From contig CP073218.1 in NCBI GenBank assembly GCA_020342235.1, positions 992,001-1,056,000 of the forward strand: 64,000 bases of DNA. The letters run 5' to 3'. The DNA comes from Saccharomycopsis phalli. Its lineage: Eukaryota > Ascomycota > Saccharomycetes > Ascoideales > Saccharomycopsidaceae. The translations under genes were made by a program, and so were the position numbers. Positions 97 to 49,954 of the stretch are shown here, in pieces; the first letter of the stretch is position 1; each line of letters begins with the position of its first letter. Below the pieces are notes generated by a model. That model searched no databases and was not told where the DNA came from. It was given only the letters and a program-made list of their open reading frames with translations.

Positions 97-1137
97 CTAT
101 TTCATGTTGGAACAATAGCCTTTCGCGTTCATTAGACAGAATTTCATGTCCTTTGACAGCTTACGGAATGGCGAACATTTATTACCAACCTCTAACTCTG
201 GCAAGGTAACAGGTTTCTCAACAATAGAATATTTGCCCTCTACCATATCGCCTTCTCCTTGAAGTGTATAAACATATTTAAAACTAGAAAGATAGCAAAT
301 ATTCTTTTCATGATCTAAATTGCCAGGTCTTCCCTGGATAATCAAGTTTGGGTATTTACTAGTTAAGATCTGTTTAATGGCTTCCTGGCTGTACAATTTC
401 CCAATTATCAAATCAGAGATAGTTCTTTGGGCATAAGTACCATAATCTGTTAATAGAAACCTTCTAGTTGCTCTCATGTAGTCTATGTAACTTTGCTTCT
501 TTATAGGATATGACAGGGCTTTATCCAAAAGTTCATAGAACTTCAAGTACTGTTTAGGCGCGAGCTTCTTTTCATGTTGAAATTTCTTCAACTGTTTGTA
601 AGTCGATTCCTCTGGCAAGTCGTCGCATTGAACCTCATAGCATTGCTTATCGAAGGACGAAAACAGTGGTGCATGTTTCATGGCTTCTTTTAGTGGTGTG
701 TCCGCATCATTTGTTTTAGTCCAGTATTTGGTTATCCATTCCTGTTGGAAGAATGTAGGGCCGATCAACTTCTTGAAGAACTGAACTTCTTTAGGATCTG
801 GCTCAGCTTCCAATTTATTAAGCGCCTTCCACAATCCATGTATTTCAGCCGTCTCACGTTTAAAATGTAAGTAGTAGGCAAAAATCACTTCCAGGATTTT
901 TTCGTTTAAACAGCCAGAAACCACATTTTCTTTTTTTCTAACGACAGAACAAGTTCTCAAGTCCAGTGGATTGAAACTAGCAAGGAGATTATCAATCTTT
1001 TCACTGTCATCAATCTTTTCACTGTCATTAATATTGCCAGAATTACCAAGGTTTGGTTTGGTTGAAAGGGAAGCAGCCAGGCTGAATTCCAAAAAGAGCA
1101 AAGCTAATAGCAAGTCAAAGATGATTAAGATGTTCAT
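97..1137 (-). CDS. Secreted RNase T2-like protein (copy 1)
   Basis: 346 aa with an N-terminal signal peptide (hydrophobic core about residues 3-19, cleavage probably near Ala21-Ala22). Residues 100-103 read HGLW, resembling the first catalytic segment of the RNase T2 family, with Trp/Cys-rich sequence about 40 residues later. The second family signature (HEW.KHGTC type) is not recognisable, so ribonuclease activity is doubtful. Five cysteines line up with those of the paralogue at 48914-49954, which is also 346 aa and shares roughly a third of its residues by eye. The ATG is supported by the signal peptide and by a promoter similar to that of the paralogue (TATAAA, then about 30 nt to ATG). 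RNase T2 enzymes are secreted or vacuolar and cleave single-stranded RNA. The family call rests on motif and layout only and could be wrong; secretion is much surer. Confidence 0.55.
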   Translation of the reverse strand: MNILIIFDLLLALLFLEFSLAASLSTKPNLGNSGNINDSEKIDDSEKIDNLLASFNPLDLRTCSVVRKKENVVSGCLNEKILEVIFAYYLHFKRETAEIHGLWKALNKLEAEPDPKEVQFFKKLIGPTFFQQEWITKYWTKTNDADTPLKEAMKHAPLFSSFDKQCYEVQCDDLPEESTYKQLKKFQHEKKLAPKQYLKFYELLDKALSYPIKKQSYIDYMRATRRFLLTDYGTYAQRTISDLIIGKLYSQEAIKQILTSKYPNLIIQGRPGNLDHEKNICYLSSFKYVYTLQGEGDMVEGKYSIVEKPVTLPELEVGNKCSPFRKLSKDMKFCLMNAKGYCSNMK

Positions 1138-21909: not shown

Positions 21910-23775
21910 TTAATACAAAAAACTCATCAAGTCGTTGCTGTCAATAAACGAGGAAATCACGTCGTGGTCGAAATCCAACCCCAGCTTCAAATCCAACTCC
22001 GGCTTGAAATCAAAATCCGGCTTGAAATCAAACTCCGACTTTACCTCCAACTTTACCTCCAACTCCGGCTTGCCCACCTTGAAAATCTCGTGTGTGTCGT
22101 GAAAAGTATGCACCTGGCTCGTGTGCACCGGGCTCGTGCTGCAAACTGCTGGGCTCTCTATACTGCTCACGCTGCTACACGAGCTGTTGTTCCGGCACGG
22201 CGAAAAAATGTCCAATGCGGCGCTGTCCAATGCGGCGCTGTCAATGCTGTGATTTGTCTCTCTGTCCATGCCATGATTTGTCTCTCTGTCCACGCCATGA
22301 TTTGTCTCTCTGTCCATGCCATGATTTGTCTCTCTGTCCATGCCATGATTTGTCTCTATGGAATGATTTCTCTTGGAATGACTTCTCTTGGAATGGCTCT
22401 CCATGGGAGAGTCCCTGGCCAGCGTCTTGTCCAGGGCATTTCGGAAATCAATCACCTGGCCATCCACAAAATCATACTCCCCCCGCTCAACACGCCGCTG
22501 CCATTGGACCTCTGCCTCCAGCCAGTCGACGGGAAAAACCCCCGCCAGCTTGAACGAGCTGCGCACCGCGTCCGGCCGGAACACCGACTCGGAGATCGCG
22601 CCGTACTGCCGGAGAAACAGCTCCGGAGTCACGACGCTCGACTCAACGAGCTCGGCAATCTGCCCAGCGACCTCCAGCATGTGGCCGCGGTGGATCGGCA
22701 GCATCACGCAGTTCAAGTACTGGCTGTGCAACATCGGCACAATGCGGTGTTTCATACAGTACTTGAGGAACTGCAACGTTCCGTGGCAGGTGCTATAGTT
22801 GCAAATGAGGATCCGGAGCCTGCCTGCGGCCTTTGCACGGGTCAACGCGTCGAACCGGCGGAGCCAGATCAAGGCCAACTCGCCGTTTGTGTATCCGCGC
22901 GGGTCGTTGACGACGTCGGAGTTGTTGTCGACGTTTGCAATGATGTCAATGACCGCCTGGTTGCTGATTTCCCGCAGATGGATGAGCGACTCGAGCACCG
23001 AGCCGTGGAGCACGTACAACGGGTCTAATTTGGAGCCGTCGCCGCAGAGAGTCTCGACGACGGTGATGCCGGTGCTTCCAGAGACGTCTGGCGCGCACTG
23101 GGCGTCGCCTAGTGCGTCAAAGAGAAGCAGGCAGCATTTTCCGTGGTCGAGCCGCACCGCCATCTCCGACACGTTGTACACCTGGCATGCGTCGACGGCG
23201 TTGTCGTCGAAGTAGACGCGGAGCCGTTTGTACCACTGGTGCAACATTGCCGCGTAGTGGTCGTTCTGGCGCGGTTTCTGGAGCATGACGGGCTTGACCT
23301 GCCTGATTTGGGGATGGCGCTTGAAGAACTTGCTGATCCACAGCGGGCTGACGTTCTGCTTGCGCTCCTTTGTGTCTGTGTCGACGGACGGCGCCAAGAA
23401 CATCTCGTTGTAGTTCATCTCGAGAAGCTGGTTTGCCAACACATACACCACCTGCTTGCTGACAAAGTCGCTGCAGGTTGCCAACAAGCTCACACAGGTC
23501 TCCAACTCGTTCTCGTAGCTCACGCTCAACAGCATCTCGTACTCGTGCGCCACCACCTTGTTTTTGCGCTCGCCATACAAGTATTTTGTGAGCGTGGTCC
23601 GGCTGGTGCCGTAAATCCGCGCCGCTTGCCGGATCAGAAGACCCTGGCAAGTCACTGCTTTGTAGGCGTCAAAAAGCTTCTGCTCGAGCACAGGATCAAT
23701 GGTGACATGCTCGGGGCGCGTCCGCGGCACAATGGCCTTGCTGATGGCCGGTCCAGAATTCTTCTTGCGCGCCAT
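21910..23775 (-). CDS. Domesticated pogo/CENP-B-like transposase
   Basis: 621 aa counted from the ATG at 23775; the frame extends upstream only from a GTG. Residues 27-69 look like a psq-type helix-turn-helix. Residues about 80-158 look like a CENP-B/Tc5 second helix-turn-helix (ending WISKFFKRHP), and about 170-425 are a DDE_1 core. All three catalytic acidic residues appear replaced: Ser203 in YNVSE (usually NMDE), Asn326 in ICNYSTCHG (usually LLLDGHGSH), and His362 in LPIHRG (usually QPLDVG). The fold-level spacing is kept and the frame is open, so selection as a DNA-binding protein is likely. Residues about 475-510 hold five copies of ETNHGMDR. The tail (570-621) is rich in Asp/Phe/Leu and resembles an activation domain. 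Related domesticated proteins include fission yeast Abp1/Cbh1 and CENP-B. Role here unknown. Confidence 0.8.
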   Translation of the reverse strand: MARKKNSGPAISKAIVPRTRPEHVTIDPVLEQKLFDAYKAVTCQGLLIRQAARIYGTSRTTLTKYLYGERKNKVVAHEYEMLLSVSYENELETCVSLLATCSDFVSKQVVYVLANQLLEMNYNEMFLAPSVDTDTKERKQNVSPLWISKFFKRHPQIRQVKPVMLQKPRQNDHYAAMLHQWYKRLRVYFDDNAVDACQVYNVSEMAVRLDHGKCCLLLFDALGDAQCAPDVSGSTGITVVETLCGDGSKLDPLYVLHGSVLESLIHLREISNQAVIDIIANVDNNSDVVNDPRGYTNGELALIWLRRFDALTRAKAAGRLRILICNYSTCHGTLQFLKYCMKHRIVPMLHSQYLNCVMLPIHRGHMLEVAGQIAELVESSVVTPELFLRQYGAISESVFRPDAVRSSFKLAGVFPVDWLEAEVQWQRRVERGEYDFVDGQVIDFRNALDKTLARDSPMESHSKRSHSKRNHSIETNHGMDRETNHGMDRETNHGVDRETNHGMDRETNHSIDSAALDSAALDIFSPCRNNSSCSSVSSIESPAVCSTSPVHTSQVHTFHDTHEIFKVGKPELEVKLEVKSEFDFKPDFDFKPELDLKLGLDFDHDVISSFIDSNDLMSFLY

Positions 23776-24423
23776 TGCAAAGAAAAAACCCGTGGGGCAT
23801 TTGTAGGTATTTATCCCTCGCCCCACGCCCTGGAAATGGGGTTGCCCGGCCGCATACTCCGAACATGTCTTCTCCACAAAAATTGCATGCACGACCCAAC
23901 GGTCTAGTGCAGGGCCGTGCGTCCTGGTTCGAGGGGAAGGTCCAGTAGCCTAATTTTGGGTCATCCAGGCTCCGTTGATGTGCTCGTGTTTACATTGATT
24001 TAAGCACCCGCGGCTTGGGCACCGGTTCCCCCACGGGTTTCGCGCGGTTTCGGCGCACGCACTTGCGCCCGCTCGTATATCCGGCCTCGGCTCACGCAAC
24101 CGCACTCTTATCTTCAGAGTGACACCACGACCGGCATGCGCTCGCCCTATTTCAGGCATGGTCCGGTGCTTCTTTGGGTAGGCTGACGTTTGCTGCTCTG
24201 ACGTATACATCTGCGTGAGTGAGAAGTGAGGAAGTGAAGTGAGAAGTGAAGTGAGAAGTGAAGTGAGGAAGTGAAGTGAAAAAGTGAAAAAGTACAACTA
24301 ATATAAACCAATATAAACCAATATAAACCAATATAAACCAATATCAACCACCATGACCAACTCAGTCTCTTCAAGTTTTACAATATCCCTCCACCTCCTC
24401 CACCTCCACCTTGCTACCCCACC
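23776..24423. promoter_or_regulatory. Divergent promoter between the pogo-like and Cdt1-like genes
   Basis: A 648-bp GC-rich divergent intergenic region. TTTCGCGCG at 24038-24046 resembles an E2F/MBF core. GAAGTGA repeats lie at 24225-24290. Five 10-bp ATATAAACCA-type units lie at 24301-24350 before the Cdt1-like ATG. Confidence 0.5.
24301..24350 (+). promoter_or_regulatory. TATA-box array with 10-bp period
   Basis: Four copies of ATATAAACCA and one variant (ATATCAACCA) follow head to tail, ending 73 nt before the ATG at 24424. TATAAA therefore recurs once per helical turn. It is an unusual core promoter for the downstream gene. Confidence 0.6.
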
Positions 24424-31255: not shown

Positions 31256-31858
31256 ATGTCAAGACGGAAAAAACTAACTGCCGTGGGAGATGTTTCACTG
31301 GGCAAGTCTGGGATCTTGCGAAATTTCATCGCCAGTACGTTCGACGTACCAGCAGGATATTTGGACACCACGCTTGAGTACTTTGACTTTGAGACCAAGG
31401 TCGATGGTAAGGAGATTGAAATACAGTTTATAGACACGGGATACTCCAGGCTACGGCCTACGTACTATAGAGAGGAGGTGGACGTAATCTTGCTAGTGTT
31501 TAGCGTGGTGAACCCCAAGTTGTTTGAAGATATTGAGGGAGTGATTCTCCCCGAAGTGCGGCACTTTTGTCCTGGAGTTCCTGTGATTCTCGTAGGCAAT
31601 CGGATCAACTTGCGAAACGATCCCAAGACGGTGGAGGTTTTGAAGCGGTTTTCCATGACCCCGATTCTGTCATACCAGGGCCAGGATTTGGCAGACAAGC
31701 TCAGTATTCCGTATTTTGAGACGGCTGATAGTGGTGAAGGAGTGCGATCGCTATTGGAAACTGCTACCTTATTGGCCATTAACCATGTGAGGCCAACCAA
31801 GCGGAAATGTGTGCTTCAGTCGTTAAAATTGTTAATTTACAAGCTTATTGTAAGGTGA
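31256..31858 (+). CDS. Atypical Rho-family GTPase-like protein 1
   Basis: 200 aa. The P-loop GDVSLGKS (residues 11-18) is intact. Other GTPase motifs depart from Rho consensus: switch II is DTGYSRLRP (60-68) with no AGQ, so the catalytic Gln is absent. The guanine-specificity motif reads GNRIN (114-118) where TKxD is usual, and the SAK region is ETADSGEG. The LR.D segment and insert-like region after 119 are Rho features. The C-terminus is basic and hydrophobic (LLIYKLIVR) and has no CAAX box, so prenylation is not expected. It is a tandem paralogue of the gene at 33202-33810 in the same orientation, 1.3 kb away. It may bind nucleotide without normal hydrolysis or specificity. Function unknown. 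Confidence 0.75.
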   Translation: MSRRKKLTAVGDVSLGKSGILRNFIASTFDVPAGYLDTTLEYFDFETKVDGKEIEIQFIDTGYSRLRPTYYREEVDVILLVFSVVNPKLFEDIEGVILPEVRHFCPGVPVILVGNRINLRNDPKTVEVLKRFSMTPILSYQGQDLADKLSIPYFETADSGEGVRSLLETATLLAINHVRPTKRKCVLQSLKLLIYKLIVR

Positions 31859-33201
31859 TGTTCAATTGGTGAGCATAGTCATGTCATGTTTTCAGCCACG
31901 GGTTGGGAATGGTAATTTATGGTGGAGTGTCTTCTCTTTTAATGTATAATTTGTTTTGAATATGGTGATTGAGTGTAGTGTTGGAAGTATTACCTTGGAC
32001 GAGTTTCAATAGATACAGTCTGTAAAACTCCGCAAGTTAAGCTTTCGGAGTAGGCATTTGTTTCAGTTTATGATCTGGGTGTGTAGCTACAAGATTAAGC
32101 TGAGCAATGCCAGGTGACTGGCTACAAACAACCAATGGACGGCATTGGTTTAGTGGTCCAAAGAATTTACATGGATATATTTAGCCAGTGTGTAATATGA
32201 TCCTGGGTGTCAATATGCAGGGCTGGTGGATGGAATGTTCTGGAAGTGCCGGTAATTATAAAAGCGGCTTGGTGATTGCAGAGAAGATGGGATTTACATT
32301 ACTTTCTATAAGCAATTAGACGATATTGGTGGTAACAAGGGCATGACGAGGTTATTATGGCAATAGGCATGTCACATAGACTAGTATTATTACACACTTG
32401 TCACATTGTTTGTCACATAGACTAGTATTATTACACACTTGTTACATTGCTTGTCACATAGACTAGCCCATTGACTAGCCACATTGACTAGCATTATCAC
32501 ATTACTTGTCACATTGATTTGCCACATTGACTAGCATTATCACATTACTTGTCACATTGATTTGCCACATTGACTAGCATTATCACATTGACTAGTCATT
32601 GACTTGTCACATTAACTAGCGTAATCACATTGCTTGTCATTAACTAGCATTATCACATTGCTTGTCATTAACTAGCATTATCACATTGCTTGTCATTAAC
32701 TAGCATTATCACATTGCTTTTCATTGACTTGCCACATCCATCAACTAGTATTGTCACACTCACATGGCTCTGGAATATGAGACATTTGGCAAATCTTATC
32801 TACTAGCCAACGGCGCCGTCGAAGTATAAATACAGCACGATTCTACAACCCAATGAATCTCCGCGCGATTTTGGACACATCACGAGCTTGTGCGAACGGA
32901 GACTTTGGGCAAGATTGCTATATCCACGGAAGACTAGTTGCAAAAATTATAACATGACAATGACAGCCCCAAGACAAAACACGCTTGGATTTGCGGACAC
33001 CAAGTCGGGATCTTTGTCCCCTGGGCCGAGGAACCTTGAGCCATTGTTACTAGTGGTTCAGTTTACTTGGCCATGTGCGAAGGAGTAGGGTGACTATGCT
33101 GGATCAGGCTTAGCAGGTGACCTGTGACAAGGTGTATATTTCCCCCAAGGCCTATTTATAGTTTCTGGTTTTTAACACTTGACACATTTACACTTGGGGA
33201 A
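31859..33201. other. Intergenic region with tandem repeats between the Rho-like genes
   Basis: 32390-32740 carries many imperfect copies of a roughly 28-bp unit (CATTGCTTGTCATTAACTAG type). A TATAAATA box near 32824 and CTATTTATAG near 33152 could serve as core promoters; the second is about 45 nt before the downstream ATG. A small frame around 32953-33088 is not convincing. Confidence 0.6.
32390..32740. repeat. About 28-bp degenerate tandem repeat
   Basis: Repeated units of TTGTCACATTGACTAGCATT and TTGTCATTAACTAGCATTAT type, about ten copies. No coding content. Confidence 0.85.
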
Positions 33202-33810
33202 ATGGCGCAGGAGAGAATAAACTTGGCGGCAGTTGGCGACGGCGCAGTGGGACTTACGGCTCTTATGAAAAAATACATGGACGGCACGTTTGACCAGAAC
33301 TTGTATGTGCCAACGGTATTTGACAACTATGACACCGAGGTCGAACTTGACGGGAGAAAAGTCCCAGTGCAGTTCAGAGATACTGCCGGCCAGGAAGAGT
33401 ATACCGGGATCCGTGAGCTCTGTTATCCGGGTGTCGACGTGGTTCTCATTGTGTACGCGGTGAACCAGGCAGATTCGCTCATCAACATTGAGCAGCTTTG
33501 GGTCCCCGAAGTGCGGCGCTGTTGCGAGGGTGTTCCTGCGATTTTGGTTGCCGCGAAGTTGGACTTGCGGCAGGAGTATGAGCTGGCTCCAAATCCCAGT
33601 GGGCCGGTGCCGATCTCGTACGAGGAAGGGAAGCGATGTGCGGACAAGTTTGGGCTTCCGTACATTGAGACGTCGGCAGTGACTGGCGAGAACGTGGAGA
33701 AGATGTTTCAGATGGCGGTGCGGATGGCGATGTCGAATCTGCGGCGGTCGAAACGCAAGGCCAAGCGGGAGTCGCTCAAGAGTTCGTTTTCCAACTTGAT
33801 CAAGAGGTGA
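33202..33810 (+). CDS. Atypical Rho-family GTPase-like protein 2 (P-loop Lys missing)
   Basis: 202 aa from the ATG at 33202; the frame extends further upstream, but this start matches Rho N-termini. It is clearly Rho-like: YVPTVFDNY switch I (35-43), DTAGQEEYTGIRELCYP switch II (60-76), AKLD (118-121) and ETSAVTGENV (156-165). The P-loop reads GDGAVGLT (12-19): the invariant Lys is Leu18, encoded by CTT and so independent of the CTG code. Loss of this Lys normally abolishes tight GTP binding. The C-terminus is polybasic (RRSKRKAKRE) but ends NLIKR with no CAAX cysteine. It may be a pseudo-GTPase binding membranes electrostatically or titrating Rho partners. It is paired with the gene at 31256-31858. 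Confidence 0.85.
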   Translation: MAQERINLAAVGDGAVGLTALMKKYMDGTFDQNLYVPTVFDNYDTEVELDGRKVPVQFRDTAGQEEYTGIRELCYPGVDVVLIVYAVNQADSLINIEQLWVPEVRRCCEGVPAILVAAKLDLRQEYELAPNPSGPVPISYEEGKRCADKFGLPYIETSAVTGENVEKMFQMAVRMAMSNLRRSKRKAKRESLKSSFSNLIKR

Positions 33811-33929
33811 GTGGTGGTGAGTGGTGGTTAGTGGTTGAGTGGTCTGCAAGGACAAATAATATTGCTATTGTGATGCAATTTCATTGGCTTAAACATGCCA
33901 TTGTCTAGATATGGTGTAGAGTTGGAAAT

Positions 33930-34095
33930 ATTAGTTGAAGTACTAGTTGGAATACTAGTTGGAATACTAGTTGGAGAATGTGTAGTTGGAAATTCTAGTT
34001 GAAATTCTAGTTGAAATTCTAGTTGAAATTGTGTAGTTGAAATTCTAGTTGAAATTCTAGTTGAAATTCTGATTGAAATTCTGATTGAAATTCTA
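33930..34095. repeat. 12-bp tandem repeat
   Basis: About a dozen units of GTTGAAATTCTA and the variant GTTGGAATACTA. Confidence 0.85.
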
Positions 34096-34504: not shown

Positions 34505-34632
34505 AATATATACTGGCCATGTGTGTATACTGACCATGAGTGTATACTGACCATGAGTGTATACTGACCATGAGTGTATACTGACCATGATGTATACTGA
34601 CCATGATGTATACTGACCATGATGTATACTGA
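34505..34632. repeat. 16-17-bp tandem repeat
   Basis: About eight units of CCATGAGTGTATACTGA or CCATGATGTATACTGA. Confidence 0.9.
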
Positions 34633-35329
34633 CCGTATATATTGTTTATGGCCCATCTTGGAGTATTGCATTTACAACACGACACTAATTATGGTAATTT
34701 GCCGTCACCATACTTGAAACGTGAGCAGATATACATACAAAGCTCAATGAGTGCCTTCTCAGATACCACAATCCGATTAGGTGCCAAAGAAAATGGCCGA
34801 GAGTAAGCAGCCTTGGCAGAAACAGTCACATTGTACAATGAGAACCTCCCAAGACATAAAAACTCAAGAATAAGACATCAAAGCTCGAGAATAAGACATT
34901 AAATCTCGAGAATAATACATCCAAGCTCGAGGAATAACACATCAAAGACTCGAAACGTGTCAGTATGTGATGATTTCGTCATACACGTCCAGTATACACT
35001 AGGGCTAGAATTGTTTTGAAAATAGATAGACTAGATCGTGCAAATGGAATAGACATGGTAGAAAGTCTGTCGACTAAATCAGTACACATGGTAATTGAGC
35101 TGCCATGCTTTTGGCATGACCTCATGTGACTATAGCCTTGTACTGTTGACATTGTGTGCTACTTTTTAATGTCACATTTTTGAATGATTGTACCATGGAA
35201 AAATGAGCTGGCAATGGGAAGCATTGCTTGCTACTAGACTATACTGGAGAGGAGACTGCACCTGGGCAAATTAGAATGGGAAGCAATGGCACTAATCAGA
35301 AGGAAATCACTACAGAGGAATAATATTTT

Positions 35330-37904: not shown

Positions 37905-39581
37905 ATGGCCAAGAACAGCGGTGTACCAGTGATTGAGTTCCTCAAAGGTAAGTAGACTACGACTCCGGGCATACTAATCTCAGGCAGGATATACCTAGGC
38001 GCGTACAACTTTGCGCCGGCCAACACCGACGAGTTGGTGTACTTCACTGTGGAAGACCACTTGCCCTACAACTCGTTCCACTTGGACTTTGGGCCGCTCC
38101 ACATTGGTCACCTCTACCGGTTTGCGGTGGTGCTTCACAATATTTTGAACGACGATGCGAATCAGGGCAAGGCGATTGTGCTTTACTCGAGCACGGGACC
38201 AAAGGAGCGGGCCAACGCGGCGTGCCTCTTGTGCTGCTACATGGTGCTTGTGCAGTCGTGGTCGCCGCACCAGGTGCTCCAGCCGATCTCGCAGATAGTG
38301 CCGCCGTTGCTGGCGTTCCGCGACGCAGGGTACTCGCAGGCAGACTTTGAGATCACAATCCAGGACGTGGTGTACGGCGTGTGGCGCGCCAAGGAGCGCG
38401 GGCTTTTGGACTTGACTGCATTCAACTTGGAGGAGTTTGAGCAGTACGAGCGGGTGGACCAGGGGGATTTGAACGTGTTGGGCCACGACTACGTGGCGTT
38501 TGCGTCGCCGCAGCAGAAGCCCGGCCCGCTCAACGAGCCGTTCAAGAAGGTGTTGGCGTTCTTCAAGCAGCAGGACGTCCAGGTGGTGGTGCGGCTCAAC
38601 AGCCACTTGTACAGCGCGCAGGAGTTCACCAAGCGCGGCATCAAGCACATTGACATGATCTTCGACGACGGCACGTGCCCGACCATGGAGTTTGTCCAGC
38701 AGTTTATCGGCGTCTGCGAGCGCGTCATCGCCGACCGCGGCAAGGTCGCAGTGCACTGCAAGGCCGGCTTGGGCCGCACCGGTTGCCTCATTGGCGCCCA
38801 CCTCATCTACACCCACGGGTTCACTGCCAACGAGTGCATCGCCTACATGCGCATGATCCGCCCTGGCATGGTTGTGGGCCCGCAGCAGCACTGGCTCTAC
38901 TTGAACCAAAACGAGTTCCGCGCTTGGAAGTATACAATGGCTTTGGATACCGCGCCACGTGACTCGTTGGCCGGGTACCCCAGCCTCATCTCCTACGACG
39001 CGTTCCGCGCCAAGGGACGCGCCCACTCGCCTTCCGTCGCCAAACGGCGCGTCTCAGGCCGCATGAAGAAGTCCGTCCACACAGCAGTGCCGATAACCAG
39101 CCCGGGCCAGCCCCGCAAGGGAGACAACGGTCGATATGTGTCCAAGTCGTTTGCGACAAACTCCGACGAGGACTATGAGGACATTGACGAGCAGCGCGAG
39201 ATGTCCATGGACAAGGAAAACAGCTCCTCGCCGCCGGAAAACAAGCCCCCAGTGAGGCTGGCCGCCCTCGACAAAAAGGAGCCGTTCACCGTGCGCCAGG
39301 ACGACAAATCCGCGCCGCCAACCCCGAACGAGCGCCGTCGCAGCCGTGTCAGCCAGTCTCCACAATCCTCGTGGCGCGTTCTCCGCTCCATCACCTCCCC
39401 GCCAAACTCCAACAAGAAGCTGCCCAAGCCGGCCGATTCGCAGGATCTGGACGACGTACCAAAATCCCGTAGCCGCTCGGGCGCTCGAGTCCGCAACAGG
39501 TTGGCCAGCCAGTCGGTGGTGACTGATCCGATTATATCGAGCAGCACCATCCAGAAGATGAGGCCAAAGAAGGCAAAGTGA
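37905..39581 (+). CDS. CDC14: Dual-specificity phosphatase Cdc14, spliced
   Basis: Cdc14 reverses CDK phosphorylation at mitotic exit and is held in the nucleolus until anaphase in budding yeast. Exon 1 (37905-37947) encodes MAKNSGVPVIEFLK. A 36-nt intron (37948-37983) follows, and exon 2 runs to 39581, giving 546 aa. Joining yields EFLKGRIYLGAYN, matching the conserved Cdc14 start. The signature HCKAGLGRTG has catalytic Cys273 and Arg279, and the general acid is Asp243 in FDDGTCP, 30 residues before the Cys as in the family. FRDAGYSQADFEITIQDVVY and WLYLNQNEFR are near-invariant Cdc14 segments. The tail is Ser/Arg-rich and disordered and includes TSPGQPRKG, also present in yeast Cdc14. Confidence 0.96.
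37948..37983 (+). other. 36-nt spliceosomal intron in CDC14
   Basis: GTAAGT donor, TACTAAT branch site at 37972-37978 and CAG acceptor 5 nt later. Removal restores the conserved Cdc14 N-terminus in frame, and exon 1 alone cannot continue. Extremely short for a yeast intron. Confidence 0.88.
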
Positions 39582-42521: not shown

Positions 42522-44453
42522 TTAATAGACTCTCTTCCCTGGAGGAACAGTCTTGCACTCGTTGGCGTCCAAGGTGTGGCTGATGACGTTTCTGTAGTCC
42601 AACTTGACGTCATCACCATTGTCCTTTTGCCACGACAAGGTGTGCTTCATCCAGTTCTCGTCGTCTCTCTCCGGGTAGTCCTCGCGCGCATGCGCACCAC
42701 GTGACTCTTTCCGGGCGGCAGCCGACACCGCAGTCTGCTTGGCGCACGTGAGCAAGTTTTGCAACTCCAACGTCTCCACCAAGTCGCTGTTCCAGATCAT
42801 CGACCGGTCGGTTGTGCCGACGTCCTTGAAGCTCGCGTCAATCTCCGTGATCTTCTCCACACCCTCGTCCAAACTCTCCTGCACACGGAACACAGACACG
42901 TCTCTCTGCATGGTCTTTTGCATGTTGGTGCGGATCTCAAACGTTGGTTTTGGTCCACTGGCGTTGCGCACCTTGTCCAACCGCTCAATCGACTCTTTGC
43001 CCAACTCCGCATCGAGAACCTTGTGTGGGGTACCTGGAGTCAACGAGTCGCGAACAGTGTGGGAAACTGCGCGGCCAAACACCACCAAATCAAGCAACGA
43101 GTTGGCACCTAACCGGTTGGCTCCATGGACAGACACACAGGCGGCTTCACCACAGGCAAGCAACCCAGGAACGACCTTATCGTTACCATTTTCGTCCAAG
43201 GTCAACACCTCACCGGTCCATTTTGTTGGAATTCCGCCCATGTTGTAGTGGACTGTTGGCAAGATTGGAATTGGTTCCTTGGTGACGTCAACACCGGCGA
43301 AAATCGACGCGGTCTGCGAGATACCCGGCAAACGCTCCTGCAACACTGCAGGAGGCAAGTGCGACAATTGTAACAACATGTGGTCCTTCTCCGGTCCGAC
43401 TCCACGCCCAGCCCGGATCTCCATGGTAATGGCACGTGATACAACATCACGTGACGCCAAATCCTTGGCGGTTGGGGCGTATCTTTCCATGAATCGCTCG
43501 CCCTCGGAGTTGAGCAAGAAGCCACCTTCACCACGTGCACCTTCGGTGATCAAGCACCCAGAGCCGTAGATTCCCGATGGGTGGAACTGCACAAACTCCA
43601 AGTCCTGGAGCGGCAAGCCGGCACGTGATACCATGGCATACCCGTCACCGGTACAAGTGTGCGCCGAGGTGCAGGAGAAGTATGCACGGCCATATCCTCC
43701 AGTAGCAATCACGGTCTTGTGAGCGCGGAACCGGTGCAAAGTACCATCCTCCTGGTTGTAGGCGATGACACCGACACACTCGCCATTCTCCATGAGCAAG
43801 TCCAACGCAAAGAACTCAATGAAAAAGTGGGTGTCGTGACGCAACGACTGGCCATAAAGAGTATGCAACAATGCATGTCCAGTCCGATCGGCTACCGCAC
43901 ACGTCCGGTACGCTTGACCCCCGTGACCGTAGTCACGTGACTGTCCGCCGAAGGCCCGCTGGTAGATGCGTCCTTGGTCGGTTCTGGAAAATGGCACACC
44001 AAAGTGTTCAAGCTCGTAGATCGACTGAGGAGCTTCTCTGGTCATGTAGTGGATCGCGTCCTGGTCCCCCAACCAGTCAGACCCCTTGACCGTGTCGTAC
44101 ATGTGCCAATGCCAGTCGTCAGGGTGCATGTTGCCCAAGGCGGCATTGATGCCTCCTTGTGCGGCCACAGTGTGCGATCTCGTGGGAAAAAGCTTCGATA
44201 TACATGCAGTCTTGTACCCCTCGACCGCCAAGCCAAACGCAGCACGAAGCCCAGCGCCTCCGGCTCCAATCACCACACAATCGTACTCGTGGTCCACCAC
44301 ATGGTACTTGTCTCGCACCGCAGCTCCAGGGTTTGTTTTCCCCTGGACAGTTGACCCGTTGGTGATGATCTGGCTGGCCACGGCCGTCCGATGGAACAAT
44401 CTCTTTGTCTGTAACACGCGACTTCGCAATGCAACGTTGCGGATGTTAATCAT
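42522..44453 (-). CDS. SDH1: Succinate dehydrogenase flavoprotein subunit, mitochondrial
   Basis: Catalytic subunit of respiratory complex II: it oxidises succinate to fumarate with covalently bound FAD and passes electrons to the iron-sulfur subunit. 643 aa. The first 40 residues are basic and hydroxylated, a mitochondrial presequence. The FAD-binding GAGGAG lies at residues 63-68. [17 protein letters not shown] places the FAD-linked His at residue 94. [21 protein letters not shown] and the C-terminal MKHTLSW...V.LDYR segments are standard SDHA. The length matches yeast Sdh1 (640 aa). I found no in-frame CTG codon in the whole gene. CACGTGG at 44539-44545 lies about 85 nt upstream. Confidence 0.98.
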
Positions 44454-48913: not shown

Positions 48914-49954
48914 ATGAACGCCTCAACCATCTTTAATGTGCTTTTAGCTTTGCTCCTTTTGGAATTCAGCCAAGCTGCTTCCAATAAAAATCCACAAAAC
49001 AGTGTCAACTCTGAAACCAACCGGGCAATTGAAAAAGCTAATCAGCTCCTTTCTGGCGTCGATGCATTTGACTTGAGTTCTTGTCCTGTCAATAGAAGAG
49101 AAGATGCTGAACCCGACTGCCTCAAGGAGGAGAAACTCAAATTGGTTTTTGCCTACAGCTACGAACGCCTCACGAATGCGGTGATAATCCAGGGATTGTG
49201 GCCTGATGGAAGTCTGTCACCGGAACCAAGAGAATCGAAACTCAGACTCGCTGAGAGTAATATCGACCCTAAGTTCTTCCAACAACCTTGGATTTTAAAC
49301 AGCTGGCCCTCGGAAAAAGGCCGGAACTTACCATTGACGGAAGCAATGAAGTACTCATTTTCATTCACGTCCCTTAACCAAAAGTGCTACCAGGTTCAAG
49401 ACTCGATGCCATCGACATCGGTTTACTGGCAGTTGAAGAAGATTCTCGGTAATCGGAAACTCGACCGTGAAAAGTTAAAAAACAGTGAGCCGTACAAGAA
49501 GTTTGCTAAAATGTCAAAAGATGCCAAACGTGACGCTATAGAAAACAAGGCTTACATGGACTATATCACTACAACTAGGAGATTGCTACTCTTTCCGCCC
49601 GTTGGTGTCTCTCCAGTAAAAAATATTGTCAGAGCCCTTAATAGGCAAAAAAAGTGTTCTCAAAAACAGCTTAGAAAAATGTTGGAGAAAGAACTCCCAA
49701 ATGTGAATGTCAAGGGAACAATTGTCAAAGAAGCAGATGGAAAGGATTATTGTCACCTTAAATATATTGATTTTTACATTGATCTTAAACTCCAAGGTGA
49801 TTTAGTGGACAGCAAATATGAAATTACCCAATCTAACAAAGTTAATTTTCCAAATACATCGTCTGATGAACAAGATTGCTCGCCATATCTTAAACTGTCA
49901 GAAAATTTACAATTCTATTTTCCATCCGAGGATAGAAAATACACAATTTTGTGA
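48914..49954 (+). CDS. Secreted RNase T2-like protein (copy 2)
   Basis: 346 aa, the same length as the paralogue at 97-1137, with a similar signal peptide (core LLALLLLEF, cleavage near Ala21-Ala22). The first RNase T2 segment reads QGLWPDG (residues 93-99), closer to the family consensus HGLWPDG than copy 1 except that the catalytic His position is Gln. It is followed by FFQQPWILNSWPS, which resembles the LxxYWPS segment before the second catalytic motif, but HEW.KHG itself is not recognisable. Five Cys positions agree with copy 1. The protein is likely secreted and probably not an active ribonuclease. The promoter from about -75 matches copy 1, including CATGGATA and TATAAA. The fold assignment is by motif only. 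Confidence 0.6.
   Translation: MNASTIFNVLLALLLLEFSQAASNKNPQNSVNSETNRAIEKANQLLSGVDAFDLSSCPVNRREDAEPDCLKEEKLKLVFAYSYERLTNAVIIQGLWPDGSLSPEPRESKLRLAESNIDPKFFQQPWILNSWPSEKGRNLPLTEAMKYSFSFTSLNQKCYQVQDSMPSTSVYWQLKKILGNRKLDREKLKNSEPYKKFAKMSKDAKRDAIENKAYMDYITTTRRLLLFPPVGVSPVKNIVRALNRQKKCSQKQLRKMLEKELPNVNVKGTIVKEADGKDYCHLKYIDFYIDLKLQGDLVDSKYEITQSNKVNFPNTSSDEQDCSPYLKLSENLQFYFPSEDRKYTIL

What the first reader, a model, noticed from the sequence alone, without database searches (positions are those of the whole stretch)
31256..33810. Tandem pair of atypical Rho-like GTPases, one lacking the P-loop lysine
Two adjacent same-strand Rho-family paralogues have complementary defects. The first keeps GKS in the P-loop but lacks the switch II Gln (DTGYSRLRP) and the TKxD-type specificity motif (GNRIN). 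The second keeps switch I, DTAGQ and AKLD but has Leu18 instead of the invariant P-loop Lys (CTT codon, so not a genetic-code artefact). Neither has a CAAX box. Both frames are full length (200 and 202 aa), which argues against simple decay. They could be pseudo-GTPase regulators of polarity, possibly acting as a pair. Inference only.
Basis: partly seen in the sequence, partly recalled or inferred. Interest (0 to 1): 0.75.

Follow-up and report, generated by a model that had tools for sequence, protein, structure and literature searches.

The report
Paired Rho-like proteins with broken switches
A yeast genome carries two neighbouring genes for Rho-type switch proteins in which parts of the switch machinery and the usual membrane anchor are missing, so they may act as fixed scaffolds or decoys instead of on/off switches; the kind is known, but this pairing is unusual and untested.

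Summary
Confirmed: two intact same-strand Rho-family ORFs (31256-31858, 200 aa; 33202-33810, 202 aa) in a yeast-like window, 35% identical to each other and about 40% to RhoA/Rho1. ORF2 is near-canonical (keeps 33 of 42 positions invariant in nine Rho references) but has Leu for the P-loop Lys; CTT differs from both Lys codons at all three bases. ORF1 is degraded in all five G motifs (21 of 42): Gly14 to Val, four residues missing from switch II including the catalytic Gln, NRIN for NKxD, damaged G5. CAAX loss therefore probably preceded the duplication. No well-formed intron restores a CAAX. Codon-position divergence, codon usage and open frames show long protein-level selection, but no fungal relatives could be searched, so recent decay remains possible. 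Best reading: a pair of Rho pseudo-GTPases, ORF1 hydrolysis-dead and perhaps on-like, ORF2 unable to load nucleotide but keeping its effector loop. Pseudo-GTPases, including a fungal Rho (Trichoderma Rho6) without the P-loop Lys, are known. The CUG-clade assignment is unproven.

The parts
31256..31858 (+). ORF1, 200-aa Rho-like protein, all five G motifs degraded
31286..31309 (+). ORF1 P-loop GDVSLGKS: Lys and Ser kept, RhoA Gly14 (Ras Gly12) is Val
31433..31441 (+). ORF1 DTG, remnant of DTAGQED; four residues including the catalytic Gln missing in frame
31595..31609 (+). ORF1 G4 motif GNRIN in place of GNKKD
31808..31819 (+). ORF1 internal CAAX-like CVLQ after KRK, where a CAAX box would be expected
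31820..31855 (+). ORF1 12-residue C-terminal extension SLKLLIYKLIVR, homologous to the end of ORF2; inside a predicted helix 182-199
33202..33810 (+). ORF2, 202-aa Rho-like protein, near-canonical except the P-loop Lys, part of switch II and the C-terminus
33235..33258 (+). ORF2 P-loop GDGAVGLT; Leu18 codon CTT at 33253-33255
33304..33330 (+). ORF2 switch I YVPTVFDNY, identical to yeast Cdc42 (recalled sequence)
33772..33807 (+). ORF2 C-terminal extension SLKSSFSNLIKR, homologous to the end of ORF1; inside a predicted helix 163-201
32370..32729 (.). minisatellite-like tandem arrays (periods 41, 43, 28 and others) between the two genes

Best explanation
The two genes are most likely an old tandem duplicate of a Rho1-like gene whose common ancestor had already lost its C-terminal CAAX box through a short C-terminal extension. 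Both products keep the Rho fold but no longer work as GTP switches. ORF1 keeps the phosphate-binding Lys/Ser and the switch I Thr but has lost the catalytic Gln, Gly14 and the guanine-specifying Asp; it should be unable to hydrolyse GTP and, if it still binds nucleotide, should exchange it fast and with relaxed base specificity, that is, stay in a fixed or on-like state. ORF2 lacks the P-loop Lys and should load nucleotide poorly or not at all, but its effector loop is intact, so it most likely acts as a non-cycling scaffold or decoy for Rho/Cdc42 partners. Their basic, probably helical tails would replace the prenyl anchor or bind partners. Shown: sequences, sequence match to Rho, shared tail, long-term protein selection. 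Predicted by model only: fold and helical tails. Inferred: common descent before CAAX loss, nucleotide states, decoy/scaffold role, tail function.
For: Rho identity. Predicted Rho fold: Foldseek best hits are Aspergillus Rho1 for ORF2 and RhoA for ORF1; mean pLDDT 71.3 for ORF2 (alignment of 2 sequences) and 80.7 for ORF1 (12 sequences). Motif table and invariant counts, 21 of 42 and 33 of 42. Selection on the protein over the total divergence: 192 aligned codons differ at 0.495/0.344/0.635 of positions 1/2/3, 42 of 72 identical residues use different codons; NG86 dN 0.61, dS about 3.2 (saturated); only 1 of 2000 neutral simulations kept the frame open. Codon adaptation 0.575 (ORF1) and 0.706 (ORF2) against means of 0.444 and 0.473 for random synonymous choice, 0 of 2000 draws reaching either; the six window genes from which the index was built score 0.685-0.774. 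Shared tail: 10 of 24 identical, 0 of 100000 shuffles reach the score; the last 12 residues 6 of 12 identical, 82 of 100000, or 139 of 20000 when slides are allowed. Analogy: Rac1 K16R is deficient in GTP loading; RhoH is GTPase-deficient through G3 changes and loss of Gly12; RhoA K118R is activating (PMC13236570, passages). Ras K117R lowers nucleotide affinity and raises exchange (PMC8295990, passages). Ras D119N and Arl3 D129N are called fast cycling (PMC9831603, passages).
Against: No orthologue was examined, so recent loss of constraint cannot be excluded. ORF1 has lower codon adaptation (0.575) than the six reference genes (0.685-0.774; these define the index, so the gap is overstated). 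Substitutions at Ras positions 12, 61, 117 or 119 tend to be activating whatever the residue (recalled in part), so ORF1's 'on-like' set is also what decay would give. ORF1's effector loop is altered (V38T, F39L, N41Y, Y42F), which argues against ordinary effector binding; ORF2 has R68G and L69I in switch II. The tree gives the pair weak support as sisters (53/11, long branches), and each is nearer to RhoA/Rho1 (about 40%) than to the other (33.5% in the alignment, 35% in BLASTP). The amphipathic character of the tail is weak: for the 12-residue tails 55% (ORF1) and 4.4% (ORF2) of shuffles do as well, for 20-residue tails 74% and 29%. Model confidence is low at the P-loop and switch I (ORF2 pLDDT below 50 at 31-38, ORF1 at 34-37).
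Confidence: 0.45

Rival explanations
1. Recently released duplicates: an old functional CAAX-less Rho pair in which one or both copies, ORF1 above all, has lost constraint and is now drifting with the frame still open.
For: ORF1 lost 21 of 42 reference-invariant positions spread over all G motifs and its codon adaptation, 0.575, lies below ORF2 (0.706) and the six reference genes. No relative was available to show conservation.
Against: Both frames are open, the gaps in their alignment are whole codons, the tails are conserved, and ORF2 codon usage (0.706) lies within the range of the six reference genes.
Confidence: 0.27
2. Antagonistic pair: ORF1 behaves as a natural always-on Rho and ORF2 as a natural dominant-negative that traps exchange factors.
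For: ORF1 combines Gly14 loss, Gln63 loss, K118R and D120N equivalents, changes reported as activating or fast cycling in relatives. ORF2 lacks the Lys needed for nucleotide loading (analogy Rac1 K16R).
Against: In the Ras-SOS complex the P-loop Lys itself contacts a switch II Glu and stabilises the nucleotide-free GEF-bound state (PMC3919270, passages), so losing it should weaken a GEF trap. The ORF1 effector loop is altered. Neither has a prenyl anchor.
Confidence: 0.1
3. Still working GTPases: ORF2 binds nucleotide without the Lys through compensating contacts, and ORF1 binds guanine or another purine nucleotide; both cycle slowly.
For: ORF1 keeps P-loop Lys/Ser, switch I Thr and the DT of switch II; apart from Lys18, ORF2 keeps GxxxxG, T, YVPTVFDNY, DTAGQ and AKLD. 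In septins, a predicted non-binder, Cdc11, appeared able to bind GTP and GDP in docking predictions (PMC10731463, passages).
Against: Rac1 K16R is deficient in GTP loading. I saw no obvious compensating basic residue in the ORF2 P-loop, but did not test for one.
Confidence: 0.1
4. Splicing restores an ordinary C-terminus: an optional 36-nt intron at 31819-31854 would end ORF1 at KRK-CVLQ.
For: Removing exactly 36 nt gives ...TKRKCVLQ-stop, and the CDC14 intron inferred in this window is also 36 nt (37948-37983).
Against: The donor would be GTCGTT and the acceptor GTAAG, against GTAAGT...CTAATCTCAG in CDC14. Of the 41 plus-strand candidates of the window-wide scan for CDC14-like introns none lies between 26399 and 34962. 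The CAAX scan (GT donors in the last 150 nt, AG acceptors within 1200 nt) found 0 solutions for ORF2 and 16 for ORF1, only this one with a branch-point-like match. It would not restore ORF1 switch motifs or ORF2 Lys18.
Confidence: 0.04

Closest known systems
Trichoderma Rho6 (fungal Rho lacking the P-loop Lys)
   Same: A fungal Rho-family protein whose G1 Lys is replaced (PMC8146680, section 3.2 read in full; the paper writes 'glutamine (G)').
   Different: Rho6 has an N-terminal extension of about 130 residues and is described as related to Rho5; ORF2 has no N-terminal extension, has Leu, and is nearest to Rho1/RhoA by identity among the references used. Orthology not tested.
RhoH / Rnd proteins (GTPase-deficient Rho; Rnd is listed as pseudo-GTPase class ii)
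   Same: ORF1 shares loss of the Gly12 equivalent and switch II changes reported for RhoH (PMC13236570 passages).
   Different: ORF1 also loses the G4 Asp, part of G5 and the C-terminal CAAX box.
Class i pseudo-GTPases: p190RhoGAP pG1/pG2, CENP-M, fungal dynein LIC
   Same: Predicted loss of nucleotide binding in a Ras-like fold (PMC5593906, passages including Table 2).
   Different: [quoted passage not shown] ORF2 is a free-standing Rho with essentially one key G-motif loss. CENP-M and LIC were not compared here.
Septin pseudo-GTPases (Spn7, Shs1 candidates)
   Same: Repeated evolutionary loss of nucleotide-pocket residues in GTPase paralogues that work with relatives (PMC10731463, passages).
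   Different: Different GTPase family that forms hetero-oligomers; no evidence here that ORF1 and ORF2 assemble.
Rho1/RhoA
   Same: Nearest by identity (about 40%) among the references used and best hits by predicted fold.
   Different: ORF1 lacks the catalytic switch residues, ORF2 the P-loop Lys, and both a C-terminal CAAX.

Membership tests
Rho family (fold and homology) | Significant match to Ras/Rho models and nearest relatives in Rho | tested here: met
   Pfam Ras 73.6 and 139.6 bits; PDB top hits RhoA/RHO1; Foldseek best hits RhoA/Rho1 for the predicted models; HRas and Rab1 split off from the Rho rows with 99/98 support
Rho family (fold and homology) | Rho insert region between G4 and G5 | tested here: met
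   Present in ORF1, shortened in ORF2, absent in the HRas and Rab1 rows (alignment, references recalled)
Canonical Rho GTPase | G1 GxxxxGK[ST] | tested here: not met
   ORF2 not met (Leu for Lys); ORF1 keeps GKS but has Val14
Canonical Rho GTPase | Switch II DTAGQ with catalytic Gln | tested here: not met
   ORF1 not met (4-residue deletion); ORF2 keeps DTAGQ
Canonical Rho GTPase | G4 Asp (NKxD/TKxD type) | tested here: not met
   ORF1 not met (NRIN); ORF2 AKLD keeps the Asp
Canonical Rho GTPase | C-terminal CAAX box (99 of 111 fungal Rho proteins in PMC8146680) | tested here: not met
   Neither ends in CAAX; ORF1 has an internal CVLQ; no well-formed intron restores it
[quoted passage not shown]
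   Motifs. Fold: predicted models only
PseudoGTPase class i or ii | No nucleotide binding (i) or binding without catalysis (ii) | not testable with these tools
   Needs purified protein
Trichoderma Rho6 | N-terminal extension of about 130 residues before G1 | tested here: not met
   G1 begins at residue 11 (ORF1) and 12 (ORF2)
Trichoderma Rho6 | Orthology to Rho6 | not tested
   No Rho6 sequence was available
Functional gene under purifying selection | Orthologues with dN/dS below 1 | not testable with these tools
   No genome held for the window; viral and prokaryote collections gave no close relative

The most novel reading that the evidence does not exclude
The tandem genes encode a dedicated two-part, non-cycling Rho module: a permanently on-like ORF1 and a permanently empty ORF2 that bind each other or shared Rho/Cdc42 partners and are held at membranes by a duplicated helical tail that replaced an ancestral CAAX anchor after a stop-loss extension. 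This would be a Rho regulator pair that works by the ratio of two frozen states rather than by GTP cycling.
Probability: 0.1. Interest if true: 0.75.

Novelty: new variant of a known kind. Interest (0 to 1): 0.42.

Why it matters
PMC5593906 (passages) says that relatively few pseudo-GTPases have been discovered. A fungal pair that has jointly replaced its lipid anchor and separately lost catalysis and nucleotide loading would be a natural test of which Rho functions survive without the GTP cycle. If the genes are conserved, they make that question testable in a yeast; if they are drifting, they show how a duplicated switch protein comes apart.

Tried and rejected
Relatives: ORF2 alone and alignments A1 and A2 against viral contigs and A1 against genome contigs found none; A3 (Rho1, RhoA, Cdc42 only) found one Rab-like locus in viral contigs and ten loci in genome contigs, too far to bear on the pair; they served only as alignment depth for the ORF1 model. 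Other paralogues in the window: tblastn up to E 10 gave no row better than E 0.6 beyond the two ORFs. Genetic code: inconclusive; SDH1 uses 0 CTG among 52 leucine codons, which fits CTG avoidance but does not decide the code. Subfamily: neither a Rho1/RhoA clade nor a Rho4 clade with the pair is rejected (AU p 0.178 and 0.18). GEF-trap reading of ORF2 downgraded because of the role of the P-loop Lys in Ras-GEF complexes. XTP specificity of ORF1 from the D119N analogy: I read no passage on it, so it is recalled and not relied on beyond 'relaxed base specificity', which is inference. No paper on a CAAX-less or P-loop-Lys-less tandem Rho pair in yeasts was among the rows listed by ten searches; the library is open-access papers only and most listings were capped at 8 to 15 rows. 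RNase T2 idea for another paralogue pair in the window: no support from Pfam or PDB sequence searches.
Full report
What is there. The window is a yeast-like eukaryotic contig: SDH1, CDC14, EXO70, an Fmp27/Hobbit protein, gamma-glutamyltranspeptidase, a Mn/Fe-type superoxide dismutase, an aquaporin-type protein and a small heat-shock protein were recognised by Pfam. No genome is held for it. ORF1 (31256-31858) and ORF2 (33202-33810) lie on the + strand, separated by about 1.3 kb that contains minisatellite arrays. Both run from ATG to stop without interruption and are Rho-family proteins (NCBIfam small_GTP). tblastn finds no third copy in the window (no other row better than E 0.6).

G motifs. 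On an alignment with nine Rho references (eight recalled, one copied from PDB output) plus HRas and Rab1, 42 positions are invariant in the nine Rho references. ORF2 keeps 33, losing K7, V9, K18, L22, P31, L57, R68, L69 and C159; of these K18 is the key nucleotide contact. ORF1 keeps 21, with changes in all five G motifs: GDVSLGKS (Gly14 to Val, Ala15 to Ser, Thr19 to Ser, the last conservative), switch I YLDTTLEYF, DTG followed by a four-residue gap where Rho has DTAGQED, GNRIN, and E-TADS. ORF2's CTT differs from AAA and AAG at all three bases, so the Lys loss is not one sequencing error.

C-termini. Neither ends in CAAX. In ORF1 the Cys of KRK-CVLQ lies 17 residues after the Glu of E[MT]AT in the last helix; in RhoA the CAAX Cys lies 18 residues after it (RhoA end recalled). 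C-[VILA]-[VILA]-x occurs 11 times in 6664 positions of eight other window ORFs, so an occurrence at that place by chance is unlikely, though the comparison was chosen after seeing it. It is followed by SLKLLIYKLIVR, and ORF2 ends, in gapless register, with KRK-AKRE-SLKSSFSNLIKR. The 24-residue tail pair scores above all of 100000 shuffles; the last 12 residues are matched by 82 of 100000, or by 139 of 20000 when slides are allowed. So the extension was probably present before the duplication (inference), and a stop-loss after an ancestral CAAX box is a simple origin (inference; the first extension codon is TCG in both genes, one step from TAG). AlphaFold2 models put the tails in helices (ORF2 163-201 continuous with the last helix; ORF1 182-199), at moderate confidence. 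The hydrophobic moment is marginal in the 12-residue ORF2 tail (4.4% of shuffles do as well) and unremarkable in ORF1 (55%) and in both 20-residue tails (74%, 29%), so a membrane-binding amphipathic helix is a suggestion only.

Splicing. Both stops lie in AGGTGA, in ORF2 as AG|GTGAGT, which looks like a 5' splice site; but that GTGAGT is part of a four-copy 10-nt tandem repeat, GGTGAGTGGT, at 33806-33843, which makes a splice signal less likely. The one intron I could infer in the window, in CDC14, is 36 nt with GTAAGT...CTAATCTCAG (inferred from the missing N-terminus, not from RNA). A window-wide scan for that type gave 41 + strand and 10 - strand candidates, none on the + strand between 26399 and 34962. 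A search for introns that would end either protein in CAAX (GT donors in the last 150 nt, AG acceptors within 1200 nt) gave 0 for ORF2 and 16 for ORF1, one of them with a branch-point-like match: a 36-nt segment whose removal gives KRKCVLQ-stop. Its donor (GTCGTT) and acceptor (GTAAG) are poor, so I keep it as a low-probability rival.

Selection. Between the two ORFs 192 aligned codons differ at 0.495, 0.344 and 0.635 of first, second and third positions. NG86 gives dN 0.61 and dS 3.2, the latter saturated, so the ratio only says that the protein was constrained over most of the divergence. Changing 34% of sites at random leaves ORF2 open in 1 of 2000 runs. Codon adaptation to six window genes is 0.706 for ORF2, within the range of those genes (0.685-0.774), and 0.575 for ORF1, below that range; both exceed all 2000 random synonymous versions. 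The six genes define the index, so their own scores are somewhat inflated. None of this excludes a recent release from constraint.

Relationships. By identity ORF1 is nearest to RhoA (40.6%) and ORF2 to Rho1 (42.2%), each more than to the other (33.5%). In the tree they join on long branches with support 53/11, and neither a Rho1/RhoA clade nor a Rho4 clade including them is rejected (AU p 0.178 and 0.18). Tandem position and shared tail make common descent likely; the tree alone does not show it. Foldseek places both predicted models among Rho1/RhoA/Rac structures; the ORF2 model rests on a two-sequence alignment, and its P-loop and switch I are of low confidence.

Mechanism. For ORF2, Rac1 K16R is reported as deficient in GTP loading (PMC13236570, passages), so K18L should be too (inference). 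In Ras-SOS the same Lys stabilises the nucleotide-free GEF-bound state (PMC3919270, passages), which counts against a simple GEF trap; with an intact switch I (YVPTVFDNY) an effector or scaffold decoy is more likely (inference). For ORF1, RhoH is GTPase-deficient through switch II changes and loss of Gly12, RhoA K118R is activating and Ras K117R lowers nucleotide affinity, and D119N-type changes are fast cycling (the title of Cool et al. 1999, seen only in a reference list, calls the Ras mutant both dominant negative and activated). ORF1 therefore should not hydrolyse GTP and may be on-like or loosely loaded; but its effector loop is changed, and damage at these sites is also what decay would produce.

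Known context. Pseudo-GTPases are a recognised group with classes by nucleotide binding and activity (PMC5593906, passages with Table 2); septins lost GTPase function several times (PMC10731463, passages); a survey of 111 fungal Rho proteins found CAAX in 99 and G1-G3 intact in most, and cites Trichoderma Rho6 with the G1 Lys replaced (PMC8146680, section 3.2 read). So the kind is known; a tandem pair with a shared tail in place of CAAX and different switch lesions is, as far as the capped listings of ten searches go, a new variant.

Limits. No fungal sequence collection was available, so orthologues, dN/dS by branch and species identity are open. Reference Rho sequences other than Rho1 were recalled.

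Noticed in passing
window 97-1137 (-) and 48914-49954 (+): Two 346-aa secreted-looking paralogues, 34% identical, about 48 kb apart, with no convincing Pfam or PDB match. By eye they recall RNase T2 motifs with lost catalytic residues (motifs recalled), but searches did not support that.
   Followed up: partly
L004 1800-2588, L005 1875-2600, L006 1602-2207, L007 1869-2609: Rac-like small GTPases on Maricaulis (Alphaproteobacteria) MAG contigs, one 857 kb long (there the frame is interrupted at 2207 inside the match), each preceded by an N-terminal twin-arginine-like signal sequence (MKRRDLLKAGLALGLGG type, judged by eye): possibly exported Rac-like GTPases. Similar domains, without an obvious signal of that kind, in Zetaproteobacteria L002 and L003.
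   Followed up: no
window 21910-23892 (-): 660-aa ORF with weak Tc5-type HTH (E 0.09) and DDE_1 (E 0.11) matches below their cut-offs, perhaps a degenerate pogo/Tigger-type transposase.
   Followed up: no
window 32370-32729, 33806-34095, 34509-34634: Several minisatellite-like arrays directly around the two Rho-like genes; one (GGTGAGTGGT, 4 copies, 33806-33843) overlaps the stop codon of ORF2.
   Followed up: no
window 37905-39581 (+): CDC14 appears to have a 36-nt intron near its start (37948-37983) in which the branch-point-like CTAAT is followed directly by CTCAG, a very short intron (no RNA evidence).
   Followed up: partly
window 42522-44453 (-): SDH1 uses no CTG among 52 leucine codons and TTG in 38; CTG is uncommon in the other genes counted too. 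The CTG meaning could not be settled.
   Followed up: partly
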